Positions 53,632-64,000 of a DNA stretch of 64,000 nt are shown here, one piece after another. The notes under the pieces are model-generated. The model worked only from the letters and a program-made list of their open reading frames with translations, was not told the DNA's origin and did not search any database. Position 1 is the stretch's first letter. Each line of letters begins with the position of its first letter. Source of the stretch: Oscillatoria nigro-viridis PCC 7112 (lineage in GTDB: Bacteria; Cyanobacteriota; Cyanobacteriia; Cyanobacteriales; Microcoleaceae); contig NC_019730.1 in the NCBI RefSeq assembly GCF_000317475.1, positions 124,001-188,000 of the forward strand, in the 5' to 3' direction. A program made the translations under genes and the position numbers.

Positions 53632-55299
53632 GGGCTTGCTGAATCAGTGAGAAAAGTAAACAGTGTATGGGTTTTCCGAACAAAAAAGTAGTAAGGGTCG
53701 CCGTGAAAAACAGGTATAATCAGTCAAAACCCGTGCATCACCACCTGCGATCGTGTATAGAAAAGCTGAGCTTGCCCCAAGCTCCCCATCCGACTTTGAA
53801 CTCCCCTTTGAAGGAAGATTGTCAGAAGATAACCGTTGGGTAAAAATGACCCAACTAATTCCTTGGTTAGAATTTGAATCAGAATATGCTGCAAATTTTC
53901 CGACCGAAATGGGAGCACCCGCTTGCATCATTTAGGATGGCATTAGGGGCATTAATTATCAAAGAAAAGCTGGGAATCAGCGACATAGAAACAGTAGAAC
54001 AGATCCGAGAAAACCCATACCTGCAATACTTTATAGGTCAATCAACATACAGTAATGAACCCCCATTTGATCCATCATTATTAGTCCACTTTCGGCAGCG
54101 AATCAGTGCAAACTTAATCAAGAAAGTGAACGAACGGATGGTGGAAAAAATGCGCGAAACCACCCCAAAACCGCCCGAAAAAAAAAAGGATTCGGACGCA
54201 AAAAATGAATTAACCAATCAAGGAAAATTAGTCATAGATGCGACCTGTGCTCCAGCAGATATTAGCTATCCCACCGACTTAGGGCTATTAAACCGAGCCA
54301 GAGTTCATACCGAAAAAATCATCGATATTCTCTATAAATCCCTCAAAGTAAAAATCAATAAAAAACCCAGAACCTACCGGAAAATAGCCAGGAAAGACTA
54401 CTTAGCAGTAGCAAAACAACGACGACCTAAACGAAACAAAAAAATCCAAGCCCTTAAAAAACAACTGCAATATATCAAAAGAAACCTCGCTAATATTGAA
54501 CAGCTAATCGAATCAGGTGCCACCCTACAAAGTTTGACCAAAAAGCAATATAAAACCTTGCTAGTTCTCACAGAAGTCTATCGCCAACAACTCTGGTTAT
54601 TGGAAAATAAAAAACAGAGTATATCGGACAGTTGGGGTAAGTTTAAGCCAACCGCACATCCGTCCCATTGTTAGAGGAAAAGCAGGAAAACCCGTAGAGT
54701 TTGGAGCTAAACTGTCAGCGAGTTGCAGTGAAGGATATGTATTTTTAGACCGGATAAGTTGGGATAACTTTAACGAATCAGGAGACTTAAAAGCACTCAT
54801 TTGAAGCATTTAAAATTTACACAGGATGCTATCCAGAATCAGTCCATGCCGATCGCATTTATCGAACCAGGGAAAATCGAGCCTGGTGTAAAGAAAGAGG
54901 AATTAGAATTAGTGGCCCCCCTTTAGGAAGGCCACCAGCAATTGTTAGTAAGGAAACCAAGAAACAAGCCTGGGAAGATGAAAGAATTCGTAACTCTATT
55001 GAGGGCAAATTTGGACAAGGTAAAAGAAGATTTAGCTTGAATCGAGTGATGGCAAAGCTTGATAATACTTCGGAAACAGCTATTGCTATTACTTTTTTAG
55101 TGATGAACCTTGCTACCTGGTTAAGACGGGTTTTTTGTGTGTTTTTATGTCAAAAACCAAAAATCACACCTATTTATGGTTCAATGATTATTAAAAGCTA
55201 TAACTGGGCAAGTTATAGTCAACAAAAAGTTATGTTTTGCCGAGCTTGAATTGCCCATTAATTGCGATCGCGATTTTTCCTAACTTATTCAGTAAGCCC
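53632..55299 (+). mobile_element. IS5-like insertion sequence, copy B
   Basis: 1668 bp, the ends matching copy A in opposite orientation (GGGCTTGCTGAATCAGTGAG at 53632; complement of 55299 GGGCTTACTGAATAAGTT). A 6-bp target duplication TAGCTA lies at 53626-53631 and 55300-55305. It splits the AAA ATPase gene. Confidence 0.93.
53753..55249 (+). pseudogene. IS5-like transposase, copy B, frameshifted
   Basis: The N-terminal frame starts at 53753 (MYRKAELAPSSPSDFELPFE). It must shift near 53925 into the 266-residue frame with MALGALIIKEKLGISDIETV, KLVIDATCAPADISYPTDLG and QALKKQLQYIKRNLANIEQL. It shifts again near 54640 to PHIRPIVRGKAGKPVEFGAK, and near 54805 to YTGCYPESVHADRIYRTREN and NSIEGKFGQGKRRFSLNRVM, ending at 55249. 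Copy B keeps ten A residues near 54178-54187, so its central frame is longer than in copy A. No single frame encodes a full transposase. Confidence 0.87.
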
Positions 55300-57450
55300 T
55301 AGCTAAGTGCAAATTGAAAATCTCATAGCGAGCGCCGCTGTGTGGCAAATCCACAAACCAGATTCCGCCGTCGTCAAATCTGCGGATAAGTTCAGCCGGC
55401 AGCATTTCTAAGCGGTTAACAGTAGCTAACATTAACACGGGGCTCTCATGTTCCTGCATCCAGGTGAGCAATTTCTGCGACAGCCGTCTAGCTACACCGC
55501 CATCAGCATTTGATTCCCAGCCAGAAAAACCCTTGTCAAAATCGTCAAAGAACAGCACGCAGCCGCCCAAATTATCGGCTGTATCCAGCATTTTGTTGAG
55601 AGCGCGATCGGGATTAGAGGAACCTAGAATATTGCCCCAACTTGCTGCTAAAAGCGCATAACCTAGCTTCTTAGCAGCTAGCTTCGCACTCAAACTTTTG
55701 CCCGTCCCCGGCGGCCCCCACAGCAGCATTCCTTTGGGAGGTCTGAGGTGATATTTCTTGGCATCAGCTTCTGACAGCTTTACGACTTCGCTCAAATAAG
55801 CGTCTAATAAATCTAAACCGCCAGCATGAGGCACGTCTGGAGAAGCAATGAACTCCAACCCCTGGTCTCGAAGTTGCGATATTTTATGCTCCAATACCAA
55901 CTGTGCGATTTGGACAACTGAAGCGGTCACAGAGAGCGATCGATCTAACACCAATTCAATTTCAGCAGTTGGCAGCCCTAGACTAGAAACAGCCAGCCGT
56001 TTTTTAGCAGCTACCGCATCTGAACCAAAATCAAGGGAACAATTGCGATCGCAAAAATTATCTACAAGAACTTCGACTTCAAAACGATCGGGTAACGGAC
56101 ATTTGAGTAGAGGAATTAATGGACTTAGCTTTGATGGCAGTTGGATGTACTCACCCAGCAGTACCCAATATTGGTTGGCCCAACGCCCTTTCAGCTCAAA
56201 GAATGCGTTAGCCAATTGAGAATAACGGCGGACAAGAGGCTGTTCGGTACTGTCTGACTCCAAAATGTCCTCTAACAAAAAGATACCGGGGCAGTCATTT
56301 TCCAGCAGAAATTGCAGGACATCACTCTCGACAGATAGCTCAGTTTTACATAAGACGCATTCACTATTATACATCTGGGAAATATCTGAAACGCTTGTCA
56401 TATCTGAATGACAACCTAAAATTGGGAGATTTTTATCCAAACACCGCACCTGTTGAAGAGTTGCATAGCCAGGATTCCAATAATAAACAGGTAAACAACA
56501 CTCACTGGCGTACTGATGAAATGATGACAAGATTTTTTGGCGATCTGCACTGTAATATTCTAGGGCAAATATTGGAGTTGGAGGGACTCTTAAATTAGAC
56601 AAAATCGTGAAATATTTCATGAATTTATACATCTAAGTAGAGGATGTTTAACATAAAAATTTAACTAACATAATTAAAATTTAGCGTCCTGCTAATGAGC
56701 GAAGTTTTCCCCCTCAATTGGAGGGGGTAATTGTGCCTAACGGCACTAATAAATTGATGTTATGCAAGTTAAATTGTCAATCATGGTCACAAGTAAGAAG
56801 CAAACCGCCGCCACTCCCATTCGCTCTCAGTCACCAGTGCCTGCTAAATCTAAGCCACCTGAAAAACAGAACAGTCAAACTGTCGGCAGTAACAATGGAG
56901 CAAAATCAAAACCTCAACCTAACCTCAGCTCCGAGCAACTTGCTGGCGAGCTAGTCAAACAGATTCGCAATACAATTCATAAGAAGTACGGCGTGACAAT
57001 TCAGCGTCGCGATAGCCGTATTTCGACAAAGGTTGGCCACGCAATTCGCGAAAAACTGGGATTGGATATTCAAGCTCAGTTGAATAAGCGCAACGGTAAT
57101 GGCAATGGTAAAAAGTTCGACTGGCAAGAGTGGAACAATACTGTCTTTCCCAAGCTAGTTGGCCGACCCGAGGAACTCAAGTATGATGTCGAAGTTGTTG
57201 CCTTAGCGATGAGCCAACTTTACGATACAATTGCTGACAACCCGCAAGCTGCTATTGCCGATTTAATGGAGTTCAATGCTCAAAGCTTAAAGCGTCGCAA
57301 CGAGTTAGCTAAATCCTCTGAAGAAGATACTGAAGAACTCGATGAGGACGACGAACTCGATGATGAAGATGATGAAATTGATGACATACTCGATGAAATT
57401 GATGAGGATGACGAAGACGAGGAAGGCGATGAGGATGAGGATGATGACGA

Positions 57451-58629
57451 GGGTGCATCTCACTTTGGCGAATATGTCACCAAAGGGTTAAAATGGAAAA
57501 GCTAGTAAAATTGCCCAAAAATATGAGGTAAAGAAAATGACACCCTCAGACCAAGAACAGCTAAAAGTCTACTTAAAAGCGGCAGCAGAAATTCTTTACA
57601 GAAATACAGCTCCAAGCGAGTTAGAAAGCTTTGATAGCATAGAAAAGTCTCTCCGTCAGAAAATGCTAGAAGAAGTGGGACCAGAACTAGGTAACTTTTT
57701 TTTTCAGCAGTATCAGGAATTCAAACAGGAAAACCCAGAAAAATAAAATCAATAGTCGGTTCGCTCGAAATTACCGACAATCAAGCGAAATATTTTGGAT
57801 TGAAAGCGTATAGTCAATTCAGTCCAATGATGGAAAAATGCTGTCTTTTAATTAGTGCCAACGAATCTTATCAAATGGCAGAAAAAGATTTAGAGATTTT
57901 CACCGGAATCAAAGTCTCTCATAGTACATTACAAAGATTAGTCAAACGACAAGAATTTGAATTACCTACATCTAAACAAGGAGTTCAAGAAATTACATTA
58001 GATGGCGGGAAAGTCAGGCTACGCAACGACACCAAAGGCGAGGGTTGTTACTGGAAAGACTATAAAGCCATTTGTTTAGATAATGTTTATTCGGGAGCAT
58101 CTTTTCAAAATAATCAAAATTTAATTGATTGGACTAATAGCCAAAAATTGCGACATCCTATGTATTGCCTAGGAGACGGTCATGCGGGAATTTGGAAAAT
58201 ATTTCAAGAAATAGGAGATACTGAACAAAGACAAGAAATCTTAGATTGGTATCATCTGAAAGAAAATCTTTACAAGGTAGGAGGTTCGCTAAAACGTTTG
58301 AAATTAGCAGAAAATATGTTGTGGCAAGGTAAAATAGATGAAGTTATCAATCTATTTAAAGAGATGAAAAAACAAGCATTTAAAACATTTTGTAATTATT
58401 TAGAGACTCATCGCTGCCGAATAGTCAACTACCAATACTATAAAGAAGAATCCATAAGTTCGATAGGTTCTGGAACAGTTGAATCAATCATTAAACGAAT
58501 TGGGTTTAGGGTAAAAATATCAGGAGCGCAATGGAAGATTGAGAGCGTTCCCTCTATCCTTTCTCTTCGCTGTGCTTATCTCAACGGTCAACTTTCAATT
58601 TGATGTATTTGCCAAAGTGAGATGCACCC
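57451..58629 (+). mobile_element. ISKra4-like insertion sequence, complete copy B
   Basis: 1179 bp. Terminal repeats are GGGTGCATCTCACTTTGGCG at 57451 and the complement of 58629, GGGTGCATCTCACTTTGGCA. An 8-bp target duplication GATGACGA lies at 57443-57450 and 58630-58637. From 57713 on it matches the partial copy at 1-917. Confidence 0.96.
57537..58603 (+). CDS. ISKra4 family transposase made by -1 frameshift
   Basis: The first frame (57537-57746) reads MTPSDQEQLKVYLKAAAEIL and ends EVGPELGNFFF at a run of nine T (57696-57704). Slipping back one base there gives SAVSGIQTGKPRKIKSIVGS and continues through the second frame to 58603. The joined protein is about 355 residues with the order expected for ISKra4 transposases (N-terminal helical region, DGGKVRLR, ILDWYHLKENLYKVGG). 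Programmed -1 shifting is known or proposed for part of this family. The run TTT TTT TTT in zero frame is a plausible slip site. Confidence 0.85.
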
Positions 58630-58716: not shown

Positions 58717-58746
58717 GCTCTGCTGAAAAAGCAGAGCATTTTTTTG
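58717..58746 (+). terminator. Rho-independent terminator of the acidic-tail gene
   Basis: GCTCTGCT (58717-58724), a GAAAA loop, AGCAGAGC (58730-58737), then a run of T residues. It lies 21 bases after the restored stop at 58695. Confidence 0.85.
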
Positions 58747-58789
58747 CCTCTATCGAGGCCTTTTCCACGAATCGCGATTCAGGGTAATA

Positions 58790-59804
58790 CAGCAGATTCC
58801 ATGTATATGTGGTACACTCTATTTAGTACATCAGCAGAAAAAATGAAAGCTTATTCGATCGAGTTTCGTAAAAAAATAGTTAAAGCCTATGAACAAGGTG
58901 ATACATCAGTCAGGAAAGTAGCCCAACGTTTTGATGTGAGTAAAGCGTTTGTTCAAAAAATCTTAAAACAAAAACAAACGACTGGTCACGTTCAACCCAA
59001 AAAACAGGGTGGAAGCCTTAAAAGTGTGTTAAACTCGCGCCGGACTGAATTGACCCAGATGGTAGAAAAATATCCGGATAGCACGTTGTCAGAATATTGT
59101 GAATATTGGCTTATGAACTACAAGGAAGCTGTCAGTCCTAGCATGATGTGTCGTGAATTACAAAAAGAAAATTTAACGCGAAAAAAAAGACCATACGCAG
59201 TAGTCAGTCTGCCACTGAAAGAGTACAAATTCTGAGGTGTGAATATTGGGAAAAAGTGAAAAATATTGACCCTGACAACCTCGTTTTTTTGGATGAAATG
59301 GGCGTTTTATTGGGGTTAACACGAACCCATGCACGTTCAATATGTGGTAGTAGAGTCTACGATTTAAAACCATTCTATCGCGGAGCCAAAGTCACAGTTG
59401 TCGGAGCAATTAGCTTAAAAAAAGTAGTAGGATTGATGACCCTCAATGGCTCAATGGATGGCAGAGCTTTTGAAGTCTTTATTGAACATTTTTTAGTGCC
59501 AAACTTATGGGAGGGTGCAGTAGTTGTTATGGATAATCTACCCGCTCACAAGTTGGGGACTATTGGATCATTGATACAAGCCGCTGGTGCTAGTTTACTG
59601 AACTTATCCCCCTATTCTCCCGACTTCAATCCTATAGAATTATGGTGGTCGCAACTCAAATCTTTTTTACGTCAGTTTTCACCAACAACTACCAAGATGG
59701 TTGACATTTTACTGGCTACGGCCGTTGATTTGGTCAATCCTAAGCACTTTAAAAACTGGTTTACAAGCTGCTGCTACTGTACTTCATAAAGCTGGAATCT
59801 GCTG
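58790..59804 (+). mobile_element. IS630 family insertion sequence, compact
   Basis: 1015 bp with ends CAGCAGATTCC(A) at 58790 and the complement of 59804, flanked by TA at 58788-58789 and 59805-59806. It lies between the acidic-tail gene's terminator and the next small gene. Confidence 0.88.
58843..59789 (+). CDS. IS630 family transposase made by -1 frameshift
   Basis: The first frame starts at ATG 58843 (MKAYSIEFRKKIVKAYEQGD), with a helix-turn-helix (SVRKVAQRFDVSKAFVQKIL), and ends LTRKK at an A8 run (59181-59188). Slipping -1 gives KTIRSSQSATERVQILRCEY, then the DDE core: Asp in LVFLDEMGV, Asp in AVVVMDNLPAHK and Glu in YSPDFNPIELWW, ending at 59789. The codons are AAA AAA AGA in zero frame, a standard A-run slip site for IS630 elements. 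The element looks intact and potentially active. Confidence 0.88.
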
Positions 59805-59853
59805 TAATTGTCGCCACCGTCCGAATCAGGACGCTCTGGGAAGCAGACCCAAC

Positions 59854-59894
59854 AAATTCACAATCAAGGAAGTTTTGACCTTGATTGTGAATTT
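59854..59894 (+). terminator. Strong hairpin, possible terminator or regulatory stem
   Basis: AAATTCACAATCAAGG (59854-59869) pairs perfectly with CCTTGATTGTGAATTT (59879-59894), followed by AATTTTACC. It lies about 100 bases before the next start codon. Confidence 0.65.
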
Positions 59895-59994
59895 AATTTT
59901 ACCCACTCACCCACCACTATTTTTTTTGAATTAATTGTAATTAGCAGACTGCCGTCGCTTTAGTTGTGAAAAAAAACACGCTTGAGGGTTAATC

Positions 59995-60354
59995 ATGGCT
60001 AATCGCAAATCCGCTCCAACTCCGATGCAAAAGCAATTTGCAGAAACTCTTGAAGAACAGCGCTTCGAGATGTTTTTGCACGTTGCCCGCGAGTTAACGG
60101 GACGTGCCAAACAGCGACAGTTGCAGAAAGGTAAAGCTCTTGACTGGGAAGCGTTCAATACTTGGTTTAACAAGCAATATGAAGGCTACTCGGCTGACGA
60201 GATGCTTGAAGAAATCTTGAGCAATGTTTACTGGCTTTCATCTGAGCAAGCAGTGATTGACTTGCACTTCCGTTATATCGAATCGGCAGTCAAAGCTTCT
60301 CATAAGAAAAAGGCAACTGACGATAATGAAGAGATTGATGATTTTGTCAAGTAA
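59995..60354 (+). CDS. Hypothetical protein, 119 residues, acidic end
   Basis: MANRKSAPTPMQKQFAETLE, EMFLHVARELTGRAKQRQLQ and DWEAFNTWFNKQYEGYSADE describe a helical protein with an acidic end (ATDDNEEIDDFVK). I do not recognise the family. It shares a Lys-rich start and an Asp/Glu-rich end with the acidic-tail gene upstream, and both are followed by similar terminators. Without the IS630 (58790-59804) the two genes lie about 280 bases apart, so they may form one locus with the divergent AAA gene. GAGGGTTAATC precedes the ATG. Confidence 0.75.
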   Translation: MANRKSAPTPMQKQFAETLEEQRFEMFLHVARELTGRAKQRQLQKGKALDWEAFNTWFNKQYEGYSADEMLEEILSNVYWLSSEQAVIDLHFRYIESAVKASHKKKATDDNEEIDDFVK

Positions 60355-60382
60355 TCAATGACGACCCCCGATAAAGGGGATA

Positions 60383-60410
60383 AAATCCTGCTCCAAGCAG
60401 GATTTGTTTT
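60383..60410 (+). terminator. Rho-independent terminator
   Basis: AAATCCTGC (60383-60391), loop TCCAA, GCAGGATTT (60397-60405), then GTTTT. It lies 29 bases after the stop of the 119-residue gene. It also faces the 3' end of the minus-strand iscB gene. Confidence 0.85.
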
Positions 60411-60476
60411 GCCCGCCCACCCACCGCGCCAGTTCCCTTTGCGATATTGGCGATCGCTACGCCTCTAATTGCCGAT

Positions 60477-61769
60477 TTACTGGACGCAAGTGGACAATGT
60501 ATACGTATAACCATCATTATGGTGAATTGCCCTACAGTATTTGTGACGTACTGGGCTAACTTTTCCCGTTGGTGACATCATCTCAAAAACTCCACTCGCT
60601 CGAACAATTAGCCTGCCTCTATGAGTACCCGCAAATTTTCCTGTAGGCAGAGTTGCTTGTACCATGTCGCCAGTTTTAAAGCCGAAAAATTCCTTGCACC
60701 GTGTCTTGTGTCTGATTGGGAAGCCATATTTATTTGGCTGGCAGATCTGACGGCTGCCCCATCCTGAAGCTTGAATTAACAAAGGCCCGGCAGTCAAAAT
60801 TTTTAATTGGGACACGAGTCCCACACAAGCTGCATCTAACCAATGAGTTTTTGGTAATTCCAATCGAGTACGATTGTATTTGGTCTGACCGCCTGTTCCG
60901 ATTTCAACTGGTAATGATGTTTCTTTCAGTCTGTTAAAGAGTTGCCAGCGGGTGCTATTGACTGCTGCTGCATCTTTCAATGGTTGTTTGGCTTGTTTTG
61001 CGATTCGATCGAACAACTCAGGTTGCTGTGCTAAGAAATCTTTAAGCTCCTGATTTCCCTTGGCTTCGTTGCAGTGACGGCAAGCAATTGTGAGATTTGA
61101 AACTCGGGAACTTCCGCCTTTCGATCGGGGGTGGATATGCTCAATTTCTAATGGGATATTTTGGGCGTTGCAATAAGCACATTTTCGACCCCATTTTTCT
61201 AGTAAATATTCTCTGATTTCGTAGCCTGCTAGTTCTCCTTGTTGGTACTGGATGCCTGAGATTTCTGGGTTTTGCATCGCCTGAGTGTCAAATTTCACTA
61301 ACTCTTGAGATATTCCTGTAATTGGAACGTATCTGCGTATGCGGTTGACCCAAGTCAGAATATTTTCTACTCTTGATTCTAGACTGGGTGGCAACCATCC
61401 TGATTTTCGCGTCCGGTTTAAAAACCGGGGTTGTCGATACCTGGTTTTGCGGTTTCTCCGGTGACTGCGCAGGGCGCGACGCGATGCTAAATCGTGCTTA
61501 ATTTGTTGTCCCCTGTGGGTTAATTCAGCACCCCAGATTACTTTGTCGTCTCGGACAATTGCTAATCCACTAACTTTTGCACCCGGATCGATTTTTAATT
61601 GATGGGGTTGTATTTGGGGAGCGGATACTGTGTATTTGAGTACGATCGTCAAGGGGTAACGTCGATAAATAGCAGCTTTTTGCAGTTTTAACAATCGCCT
61701 TGCTTGTCCCGGTGGTACTGGGTTAAGCGGTTGTCCATTGGTATCGACAACAAAGACAAAATTAGACAT
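60477..61769 (-). CDS. iscB: IscB, RNA-guided HNH/RuvC nuclease
   Basis: 430 residues, a normal IscB length. N-terminal PLMP-type segment (MSNFVFVVDTNGQPLNPVPP), RuvC-I Asp61 in LKIDPGAKVSGLAIV, an Arg-rich bridge-helix region (DLASRRALRSHRRNRKTRYR), and RuvC-II Glu156 in GISQELVKFD. An inserted HNH domain has Cys197/Cys200, the EIEHIHPRSKGG active site and Cys230/Cys233. RuvC-III lies in THWLDAACVG (His309, Asp312), followed by a C-terminal target-interaction region. All catalytic residues are present, so the nuclease should be active. No tnpA is adjacent. A candidate omega-RNA lies directly upstream on the same strand. IscB proteins are the ancestors of Cas9. Confidence 0.95.
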   Translation of the reverse strand: MSNFVFVVDTNGQPLNPVPPGQARRLLKLQKAAIYRRYPLTIVLKYTVSAPQIQPHQLKIDPGAKVSGLAIVRDDKVIWGAELTHRGQQIKHDLASRRALRSHRRNRKTRYRQPRFLNRTRKSGWLPPSLESRVENILTWVNRIRRYVPITGISQELVKFDTQAMQNPEISGIQYQQGELAGYEIREYLLEKWGRKCAYCNAQNIPLEIEHIHPRSKGGSSRVSNLTIACRHCNEAKGNQELKDFLAQQPELFDRIAKQAKQPLKDAAAVNSTRWQLFNRLKETSLPVEIGTGGQTKYNRTRLELPKTHWLDAACVGLVSQLKILTAGPLLIQASGWGSRQICQPNKYGFPIRHKTRCKEFFGFKTGDMVQATLPTGKFAGTHRGRLIVRASGVFEMMSPTGKVSPVRHKYCRAIHHNDGYTYTLSTCVQ

Positions 61770-61774
61770 GGATG

Positions 61775-62030
61775 TCCTCCCTTGCGGGGTAATGTTTTCC
61801 TCGCCAATGTTTTGAGGGCTTGTTATGCCAATCGCACTTCCTTAACCAAATAGGGATGTTTAACTATTGACGACAGGGCTACAAGCTGGAAAGCACCTGT
61901 AGGTGTCATGACCCTCGAAACGTAGTTTGTAACTGAGGCTGGCTATCTCTCCAGCCTTGGAAGTGGTTGTCCACTCTTGTCTGCTGTTTGGTGGATAGCA
62001 TTCTCAGAAGGCTTTAGTTAATAGAACTTA
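61775..62030 (-). ncRNA. Candidate omega-RNA of IscB
   Basis: The about 260 non-coding bases in front of iscB are unusually rich in short stems on the minus strand. AGGCTGG pairs with CCAGCCT (61936-61957), GTGG with CCAC (about 61963-61974), CACCT with AGGTG (about 61894-61905), and there are further pairings around CAAACTACGTTTCGAG. The position and orientation directly upstream of iscB match the omega-RNA locus of IscB systems. The guide would be at its 5' end, near or beyond 62030. Exact ends cannot be fixed by eye. Confidence 0.65.
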
Positions 62031-62039
62031 CGCAGTAAT

Positions 62040-62278
62040 AGCCTAATTATGTCATTCTGAGTCCTTCAAGCAGTTTACCACGAGCGTAGCGAAGGTTCCG
62101 CAAGTAATGCGAAGAATCTCAAACTCTTGCCACACCATTACAAAGCCTAAGCCCTGGTTAATTAGTTTTATGCGAGAATGCAAGCCACTTAATAATAGAT
62201 CGTAAAACCGTTTGGCAATAAATCAAATAACTGTTTTTATTAAAAGGTTTTGATATTAAACGCGAGCGCGTTTGAGAG
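62040..62278. other. Intergenic stretch with a dispersed-repeat fragment
   Basis: It contains TGTCATTCTGAGTCCTT, AGCGTAGCGAAGG and GCGAAGAATCTCAAAC. This is the broken form of a GTCATTCTGAGCG...GCGAAGAATCTC element that I know as a common interspersed repeat in several bacterial groups. No gene is seen. Confidence 0.45.
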
Positions 62279-62302
62279 ATGTTCCATTTGCCAAGTATAA
62301 TC

Positions 62303-62824
62303 ATGTACGAATCTCTTCAGCATTTTCTCACACTCACAATTGAAACTGTAGTAATTTTTGGGTACGGTGGCTTAATTCTTCACTATATCGCTACGCTGTT
62401 AGCATCGAAGCAGATGAATTATTCTGAAAAAGTCTCCGCAGAACTTGCCCCAGATTTTGTGCCTCTTCTCAATGAAATTGCTTCCTTTCCTGCTGTTGCC
62501 GAATGTGCAGCAACTCCAGAACCCACAGAAGAACAGCGCCTCACCTCTTCGCTACAAGTTAAAGCCGAATTTGCTTCTAATATTCAACTCGATACCGACA
62601 CATTAAATCTACCCTTCATTCAAGTCGATAGCCTGAGTCTCCGACAATGCCGCACCGTTATTCGAGCGCTCAATTCCACTCTCCCACGAAGTGAGCATAT
62701 TCGCCTGAAACTCAACAAAAAAGATGTGCCAGCAGATTCGTTAAAATTTCAAATTAAGAAGCACTTTGAGCATCGACCGCAGCAAGTTGTCTCCCTAATT
62801 GAGCAAATTTTGAAAGCTAGTTAA
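62303..62824 (+). CDS. Hypothetical membrane-anchored protein
   Basis: 173 residues from ATG 62303; an earlier ATG at 62279 has less support. MYESLQHFLTLTIETVVIFG and GYGGLILHYIATLLASK form one N-terminal hydrophobic helix (about residues 9-31). The rest is soluble, with a Pro/Glu-rich linker and a helical end (LRQCRTVIRALNSTLPRSEH, FQIKKHFEHRPQQVVSLIEQ) of SAP- or winged-helix-like size. Not recognised. It could be an anchor for a DNA- or nucleoprotein-binding function. Confidence 0.65.
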   Translation: MYESLQHFLTLTIETVVIFGYGGLILHYIATLLASKQMNYSEKVSAELAPDFVPLLNEIASFPAVAECAATPEPTEEQRLTSSLQVKAEFASNIQLDTDTLNLPFIQVDSLSLRQCRTVIRALNSTLPRSEHIRLKLNKKDVPADSLKFQIKKHFEHRPQQVVSLIEQILKAS

Positions 62825-62906
62825 AATGCTCGGAGAATCAACGACTAAATTAGTGTTCTTTTTCAAAAAAACTTCTGGTAACGAGTTGATAAAAAGTTTT
62901 TTTGAA

Positions 62907-63078
62907 TGAACCCTCCTTTTCCTGACCAAGCTATTAGTTACTTTCTTCAGCGCCAAGGGGAATCAGACCCTTGCCAATCTGTTCGCTCAACTCGTTGAGA
63001 CTCAATCCCAGTTCAATGGCGATCGCACCGCACGAATTCTCTCCATCCCACCGACGTTACCTGGATATAAGCTAGATA
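62907..63078 (+). pseudogene. 5' fragment of an unknown gene, cut by IS5-like copy C
   Basis: ATG 62907 reads MNPPFPDQAISYFLQRQGES. After a one-base shift near 62970 it continues LANLFAQLVETQSQFNGDRT and ARILSIPPTLPGYKLD to the insertion point at 63078. The pattern suggests a real protein-coding N-terminus. The function is unknown. Confidence 0.5.
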
Positions 63079-64000
63079 GGGCTTACTGAATAAGTTAGGA
63101 AAAATCGCGATCGCAATTAATGGGCAATTCAAGCTCGGCAAAACATAACTTTTTGTTGACTATAACTTGCCCAGTTATAGCTTTTAATAATCATTGAACC
63201 ATAAATAGGTGTGATTTTTGGTTTTTGACATAAAAACACACAAAAAACCCGTCTTAACCAGGTAGCAAGGTTCATCACTAAAAAAGTAATAGCAATAGCT
63301 GTTTCCGAAGTATTATCAAGCTTTGCCATCACTCGATTCAAGCTAAATCTTCTTTTACCTTGTCCAAATTTGCCCTCAATAGAGTTACGAATTCTTTCAT
63401 CTTCCCAGGCTTGTTTCTTGGTTTCCTTACTAACAATTGCTGGTGGCCTTCCTAAAGGGGGGCCACTAATTCTAATTCCTCTTTCTTTACACCAGGCTCG
63501 ATTTTCCCTGGTTCGATAAATGCGATCGGCATGGACTGATTCTGGATAGCATCCTGTGTAAATTTTAAATGCTTCAAATGAGTGCTTTTAAGTCTCCTGA
63601 TTCGTTAAAGTTATCCCAACTTATCCGGTCTAAAAATACATATCCTTCACTGCAACTCGCTGACAGTTTAGCTCCAAACTCTACGGGTTTTCCTGCTTTT
63701 CCTCTAACAATGGGACGGATGTGCGGTTGGCTTAAACTTACCCCAACTGTCCGATATACTCTGTTTTTTATTTTCCAATAACCAGAGTTGTTGGCGATAG
63801 ACTTCTGTGAGAACTAGCAAGGTTTTATATTGCTTTTTGGTCAAACTTTGTAGGGTGGCACCTGATTCGATTAGCTGTTCAATATTAGCGAGGTTTCTTT
63901 TGATATATTGCAGTTGTTTTTTAAGGGCTTGGATTTTTTTGTTTCGTTTAGGTCGTCGTTGTTTTGCTACTGCTAAGTAGTCTTTCCTGGCTATTTTCCG
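63079..64000 (-). mobile_element. IS5-like insertion sequence, copy C (runs out of the window)
   Basis: It starts GGGCTTACTGAATAAGTTAG at 63079 and follows copy A base for base apart from single differences, for example a T7 run near 63932 where copy A has T6. 922 of about 1668 bp are inside the window. The six bases before it are TAGATA, which fits the TANNTA target pattern of copies A and B. It holds the C-terminal transposase frame (63129-63341) and the shared frameshifts. Confidence 0.93.

What the first reader, a model, noticed from the sequence alone, without database searches (positions are those of the whole stretch)
60477..62030. Intact IscB with a structured upstream non-coding region: a complete-looking OMEGA nuclease without a transposase
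All RuvC and HNH catalytic residues are present, and the upstream DNA folds into several short stems in the place expected of the omega-RNA. No tnpA is nearby. The cassette lies on a plasmid-like, IS-rich segment next to the disrupted AAA locus.
Basis: partly seen in the sequence, partly recalled or inferred. Interest (0 to 1): 0.6.

Follow-up and report, generated by a model that had tools for sequence, protein, structure and literature searches.

The report
IscB transposon landing beside HIP1 palindromes
This is an intact, recently mobile 1.5-kb cyanobacterial jumping element that carries the RNA-guided DNA cutter IscB and its guide RNA but no transposase; it and nearly all its relatives sit just in front of CGATCG, the core of HIP1, the commonest 8-letter palindrome in these genomes, which predicts the motif its nuclease recognises.

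Summary
The minus strand encodes a 430-aa IscB (NCBIfam guided_IscB, 479 bits) with every RuvC and HNH catalytic residue. Directly upstream lies a full-length HEARO/omega-RNA (Rfam RF02033, 120.6 bits, window 61999-61789), with compensatory changes at 26 of 60 base pairs among relatives. No Y1 transposase gene was found on the 260-kb contig.

New here: exact ends, guide and landing motif. A 99.5% identical copy in another species has unrelated flanks, which makes the element 1,542 bp (61999-60458) and recently mobile. Empty sites were found for six independent insertions. Each shows the element placed, without target duplication or loss, directly 5' of a pre-existing (G)CGATC(G), the core of HIP1 (GCGATCGC). 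This predicts a CGATCG TAM and the guide AAAGCCTTCTGAGAAT; that guide plus TAM has no other target in the genome.

The family also has HEARO-only (~400 bp) and ~100-bp end-only derivatives, so mobility must come from a transposase acting in trans. dN/dS is about 0.1.

Verdict: a genuine member of a known kind (IscB OMEGA). The HIP1 landing specificity, a likely TAM, I found nowhere in the literature held here. Cleavage, TAM use and the transposase are inferred, not shown.

The parts
60458..61999 (-). complete IscB element, 1,542 bp, left end GCTATCC..., right end ...ATTAGAGGCGTA (one-base ambiguity, G, at the junction)
   Evidence: copy in G001:C26 (RDYN01000112) 99.5% identical over this interval plus the GCGATCGC, unrelated outside; empty site in G012:C56
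60477..61769 (-). iscB, 430 aa: PLMP-type N-terminus (PLNP), RuvC-I D61, arginine-rich bridge helix 97-119, RuvC-II E156, HNH H211/H213/N234, RuvC-III H309/D312, C-terminal TAM-interacting region
   Evidence: NCBIfam NF040563 479 bits; Pfam RRXRR and HNH; solved IscB homologues; residue positions; dN/dS about 0.1
61789..61999 (-). HEARO omega-RNA scaffold, full length
   Evidence: Rfam RF02033 120.6 bits, gathering score 83; 60 pairs, 26 with changes on both sides, in 11 relatives
62000..62015 (-). predicted 16-nt guide AAAGCCTTCTGAGAAT, which is the flanking DNA left of the element
   Evidence: directly 5' of omega-RNA position 1; this flank differs completely in every copy; no second guide+TAM match with up to 3 mismatches in the genome
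60450..60457 (-). HIP1 octamer GCGATCGC directly 3' of the right end: insertion target and predicted TAM (core CGATCG 60456-60451)
   Evidence: CGATCG at this place in nearly all family copies; present in empty sites of six insertions, one with a changed last base
61962..61975 (-). short hairpin near the left end (AGTGG-ACAA-CCACT), covarying between copies
   Evidence: alignment A1 columns 26-39
57800..58603 (+). neighbouring ISKra4-family transposase fragment (context, not part of the element)
   Evidence: NCBIfam NF033572 263.9 bits over profile positions 110-422
58744..59789 (+). neighbouring IS630-family transposase split into two ORFs (context)
   Evidence: Pfam HTH_Tnp_IS630 and DDE_3

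Best explanation
This is a complete non-autonomous IscB (OMEGA) transposon. Shown: a 1,542-bp unit made of HEARO RNA plus iscB moves as a block and lands without duplication directly 5' of a pre-existing (G)CGATCG, so that the DNA on its left becomes the guide and the HIP1 core on its right becomes the adjacent motif. Inferred: a transposase encoded elsewhere, most likely a single-strand Y1 TnpA of the IS200/IS605 kind, cuts and pastes the element; the HEARO transcript with its 5' guide loads IscB; the complex cuts sister molecules (chromosome copies or plasmid copies) where the same site is still empty, that is guide target followed by CGATCG; repair from the occupied copy restores or spreads the element. 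The occupied locus is safe because the element separates the guide match from the CGATCG.
For: IscB family model and catalytic residues. HEARO RNA at the expected place with compensatory pairs. Exact ends from a 99.5% copy in another species with unrelated flanks. Empty sites for six independent insertions (window element, G017:C2, G018:C6, G001:C80, G001:C26, G018:C30), all with (G)CGATC(G) already present and with no duplication or loss. Among ten family loci found by IscB protein similarity, independently of the motif, nine carry CGATCG at the junction, against a background of 126 per 64 kb. Purifying selection, dN/dS about 0.1. Guide plus CGATCG occurs nowhere else in the genome with up to 3 mismatches. 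Derivatives that keep both ends but lost iscB (~400 bp), or also most of the RNA (~100 bp), exist at their own CGATCG sites, so the mobility function acts in trans.
Against: No transcript, cleavage or transposition data. The transposase was not found: the Y1 elements of this genome whose ends I inspected do not sit next to CGATCG. That the nuclease's TAM equals the insertion motif is by analogy with characterised OMEGA systems. The single empty site for the window element itself reads GCGATCA, so one base of the core differs there. One family copy (UBA11372) reads GGGAGCGC at the junction.
Confidence: 0.83

Rival explanations
1. The CGATCG preference belongs only to the unknown transposase; the IscB nuclease recognises a different or looser motif that merely tolerates CGATCG.
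For: Only insertion sites were observed, never cleavage. TAMs of assayed IscBs that I could read are AT-rich (NTAAA, NWRRNA; PMC13180657).
Against: The empty sites that the nuclease would meet carry CGATCG, so a nuclease that did not accept it would have no target. iscB is under purifying selection.
Confidence: 0.25
2. A fossil: the element is immobile and the nuclease inactive or no longer used.
For: No transposase in cis; solo right ends and truncated copies exist in relatives.
Against: Intact ORF and catalytic residues, dN/dS about 0.1, and a 99.5% identical copy at an unrelated site in another species.
Confidence: 0.08
3. A domesticated host system (defence or regulation) that uses the HEARO guide against phage or host genes.
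For: The nuclease is intact without a transposase, and an AAA gene with weak similarity to the defence protein IetA lies about 4 kb away.
Against: The guide is simply the flanking DNA of each insertion and changes with each copy. The guide and TAM have no second target in the genome. The flanks are homologous to an empty locus in a relative.
Confidence: 0.05
4. CGATCGC is the fixed right end of the transposon, not target DNA.
For: It is present at the right boundary of nearly every copy.
Against: Empty sites of five insertions contain intact CGATCG before insertion, and the base after CGATCG varies between copies in step with the flank.
Confidence: 0.02

Closest known systems
IscB / HEARO OMEGA systems (KraIscB, OgeuIscB, OrufIscB)
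   Same: PLMP, RuvC I-III with arginine-rich helix, HNH, compact size, HEARO RNA directly upstream, guide taken from the left flank, usually no TnpA next door
   Different: Landing motif is the palindrome CGATCG (HIP1 core); published IscB TAMs that I could read are AT-rich (NTAAA, NWRRNA)
IS200/IS605 elements with TnpB
   Same: Insertion without duplication next to a fixed motif, with the guide taken from the flank on the other side
   Different: Nuclease family (HNH+RuvC against RuvC only), guide RNA at the opposite end, no tnpA in the element
Cas9d / type II-D Cas9
   Same: HNH domain resemblance (44.5 bits, below cut-off 375)
   Different: 430 aa, no CRISPR repeat array in the vicinity

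Membership tests
IscB (OMEGA) RNA-guided nuclease | IscB family profile above curated cut-off | tested here: met
   NF040563 479.2 bits against 175
IscB (OMEGA) RNA-guided nuclease | RuvC-I/II/III and HNH catalytic residues intact | tested here: met
   D61, E156, H211/H213, N234, H309/D312; aligned with TbaIscB and HfmIscB
IscB (OMEGA) RNA-guided nuclease | omega-RNA (HEARO) directly upstream with conserved structure | tested here: met
   RF02033 120.6 bits, 26 of 60 pairs with compensatory change
IscB (OMEGA) RNA-guided nuclease | guide position is flanking DNA; RNA start equals transposon end | tested here: met
   HEARO position 1 coincides with the left end; flanks differ between copies
IscB (OMEGA) RNA-guided nuclease | RNA-guided DNA cleavage with a TAM | not testable with these tools
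   needs a cleavage assay; TAM CGATCG predicted from insertion sites
Autonomous ISC transposon (TnpA/IscA plus IscB) | Y1 transposase inside the element | tested here: not met
   1,542-bp element holds only iscB; no PF01797 on the contig; no Y1 within 4 kb in 14 relatives
Cas9d / type II-D CRISPR nuclease | CRISPR array and Cas9d profile | tested here: not met
   44.5 bits against cut-off 375; no repeat array in 59000-64000
HIP1-adjacent insertion (this clade) | insertion directly 5' of pre-existing CGATCG | tested here: met
   six insertions with empty sites, one of them with CGATCA

The most novel reading that the evidence does not exclude
A cyanobacterial IscB clade has adopted the core of HIP1, the most over-represented and (through CGATCG-specific orphan methyltransferases) probably methylated palindrome of its hosts, as both its landing site and the TAM of its nuclease, so that permitted sites are spread over the whole genome and cleavage could depend on CGATCG methylation.
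Probability: 0.6. Interest if true: 0.5.

Novelty: new member of a known kind. Interest (0 to 1): 0.4.

Why it matters
Natural TAMs and guides of IscBs are mostly known from biochemical screens; here they are read from evolution with matched empty and occupied sites. A TAM equal to HIP1 would give the unexplained HIP1 repeat a mobile-element partner, a six-base TAM unlike the AT-rich ones reported, and a direct test of whether host methylation of CGATCG affects an OMEGA nuclease. The set of full, RNA-only and end-only derivatives with empty sites also makes trans-mobilisation testable.

Tried and rejected
Looked for the trans-acting transposase: the genome has 18 Y1 matches. The multi-copy IS605 family (five copies compared) and the two tnpA-plus-intron families have ends unrelated to the IscB element and do not abut CGATCG. 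A scan for the right-end motif in 30 congeners and 242 class-level genomes turned up no element with tnpA between the same ends; most class-level hits at 2 mismatches look like chance genic matches. The plasmid collection held no close relative of the region. Papers on HIP1 with transposons or with IscB gave nothing on point; the original HEARO paper is not held. PADLOC hits to PtuB are HNH-superfamily resemblance only. I considered and rejected CGATCG being the transposon's own end (refuted by empty sites) and a Cas9d/CRISPR assignment.

Full report
1. Observation. The minus-strand ORF 61769-60477 encodes 430 aa. Pfam RRXRR and HNH and the NCBIfam equivalog guided_IscB (479 bits, cut-off 175) identify it as IscB. 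Against solved structures it matches TbaIscB, HfmIscB and OgeuIscB. RuvC-I D61, RuvC-II E156, HNH H211/H213/N234 and RuvC-III H309/D312 are present. The 211 nt upstream (61999-61789, minus strand) match the whole Rfam HEARO model at 120.6 bits. An alignment of 11 relatives folds into 60 pairs, 26 of which show changes on both sides.

2. Ends of the element. A search of 40 related genomes found a copy in another species (G001:C26, the MAG contig RDYN01000112) that is 99.5% identical over window 61999-60450 and unrelated outside it. The left end coincides with base 1 of the HEARO RNA. Other copies, at 68-77% identity, begin and stop at the same places. The high identity at an unrelated site means recent movement. 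Between the two near-identical copies iscB differs by 7 codons, 3 of them changing the amino acid; against relatives at 69-76% nucleotide identity dN is 0.14-0.20 with dS from 1.3 to saturation.

3. Landing site. The right boundary of the family reads ATTAGAGGCGTA followed by (G)CGATCG, the core of HIP1, in nearly all copies. Of ten family loci found by protein similarity, nine have it; UBA11372 reads GGGAGCGC. CGATCG occurs 126 times in the 64-kb window, about 0.002 per position. Whether it belongs to the element or to the target was settled with empty sites. I joined the flanks of six insertions and searched 30 congeners; empties were recovered for five of these six, and for the window element. 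Examples: G001:C26 insertion, empty in G024...CCTAAAAGG^GCGATCGCTTG; G018:C30 insertion, empty in G012...CGTAAGTC^GCGATCGATC; G001:C80 insertion, empty in G004...GGTGTA^GCGATCGAGG; G017:C2 insertion, empty in about 20 genomes, 18 of them with CGATCG in place; a 102-bp end-only copy in G018:C6 and G040, empty in seven genomes...ACAAGAC^GCGATCGC. Nothing is duplicated or lost. For the window element the relative (G012:C56) reads GAGAAT^GCGATCATAAATG, so that site has one base of the core changed. The junction has a one-base (G) ambiguity.

4. Guide. By the architecture of IscB systems (established knowledge) the guide is the 16-20 nt 5' of the HEARO scaffold, here AAAGCCTTCTGAGAAT (62015-62000). 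With CGATCG appended, the whole 8.27-Mb genome contains no second match with up to 3 mismatches; the single hit is its own locus, where the element has displaced the CGATCG. The occupied site is therefore not a predicted target and an empty one is.

5. Family structure. Beside full elements there are ~390-408-bp copies with a complete HEARO RNA and no iscB (L204, L206), and ~100-bp copies with only the two ends (L190, L191, L193). The end-only copy in G018 has ends 99-100% identical to the window element. Mobility therefore needs neither IscB nor a full RNA in cis. The motif is concentrated in this genus (15 of 30 genomes, reversed-pattern control 0) and rare in the wider class. IscBs of 54-60% identity in Anabaena 4-3, Ktedonobacteraceae and Azohydromonas have no CGATCG within 400 bp of the stop, whereas two 59-60% relatives with the same right end do. 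The HIP1 link is thus a property of this clade, not of IscB in general.

6. Mechanism. Shown: block movement, sites, guide architecture, selection on the protein and on the RNA structure. Inferred: a Y1-type transposase supplied in trans, RNA-guided cutting of empty alleles at guide+CGATCG, and repair from the occupied copy. On a multicopy replicon this acts as a drive, as reported for TnpB on plasmids (PMC11870625). The transposase was not identified: there are 18 Y1 matches in the genome, none on this contig, and the families inspected have different ends and targets.

7. Known and new. IscB/HEARO systems are well known, and most lack a neighbouring TnpA (PMC9755519). HIP1 is over-represented in the presumed host (Oscillatoria PCC 7112, 630 per Mb, O/E 60), and genomes rich in HIP1 generally carry GATC- and CGATCG-specific methyltransferases (PMC4390886). 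Assignment of the window to PCC 7112 rests on contig sizes and my memory, not on a record. I found no paper in the held library linking HIP1 with transposon insertion or with IscB. Published IscB TAMs that I could read are NTAAA and NWRRNA types; supplementary tables were not readable. I file this as a new member of a known kind with an apparently undescribed target motif.

Noticed in passing
L111 2480-6174 (G000:C1 ~611.2-615.2 kb) and L112 2143-5855 (G000:C2 ~100.9-104.9 kb): Two other iscB genes of the same genome, 56-58% identical to this one, are interrupted by the same ~2.4-kb group II intron (RT/maturase/HNH protein, Rfam domain V hit) at the same codon, YPFT(L/I)I^LK; removing it restores the iscB reading frame. 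An intron homing into an RNA-guided nuclease gene.
   Followed up: partly
L170, L171 (G000:C1:1.663-1.671 Mb and 2.971-2.979 Mb): A different group II intron sits in the 3' end of a degraded tnpB of an IS200/IS605 element, with tnpA-tnpB-intron shared as a 4.4-kb block between two loci.
   Followed up: partly
L167-L169 (G000:C1:0.760, 2.3285, 5.309 Mb): Three loci share a ~3.9-kb block holding a Y1 tnpA and a group II intron with an HNH maturase; possibly an intron-plus-IS composite.
   Followed up: no
L001, L004, L007 (G000:C1): HEARO RNAs above the gathering score without a recognisable iscB downstream, of a different HEARO subtype (start GTCA), candidate guide RNAs acting in trans.
   Followed up: partly
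L204, L206: ~390-408-bp elements with complete HEARO RNA and the CGATCG right end but no iscB, sharing a ~150-bp non-coding segment between RNA and right end.
   Followed up: partly
window 55289-56632 (-): AAA ATPase with below-cut-off similarity to the anti-phage protein IetA/IteA (PADLOC 54 bits; NCBIfam 50 bits against 510).
   Followed up: no
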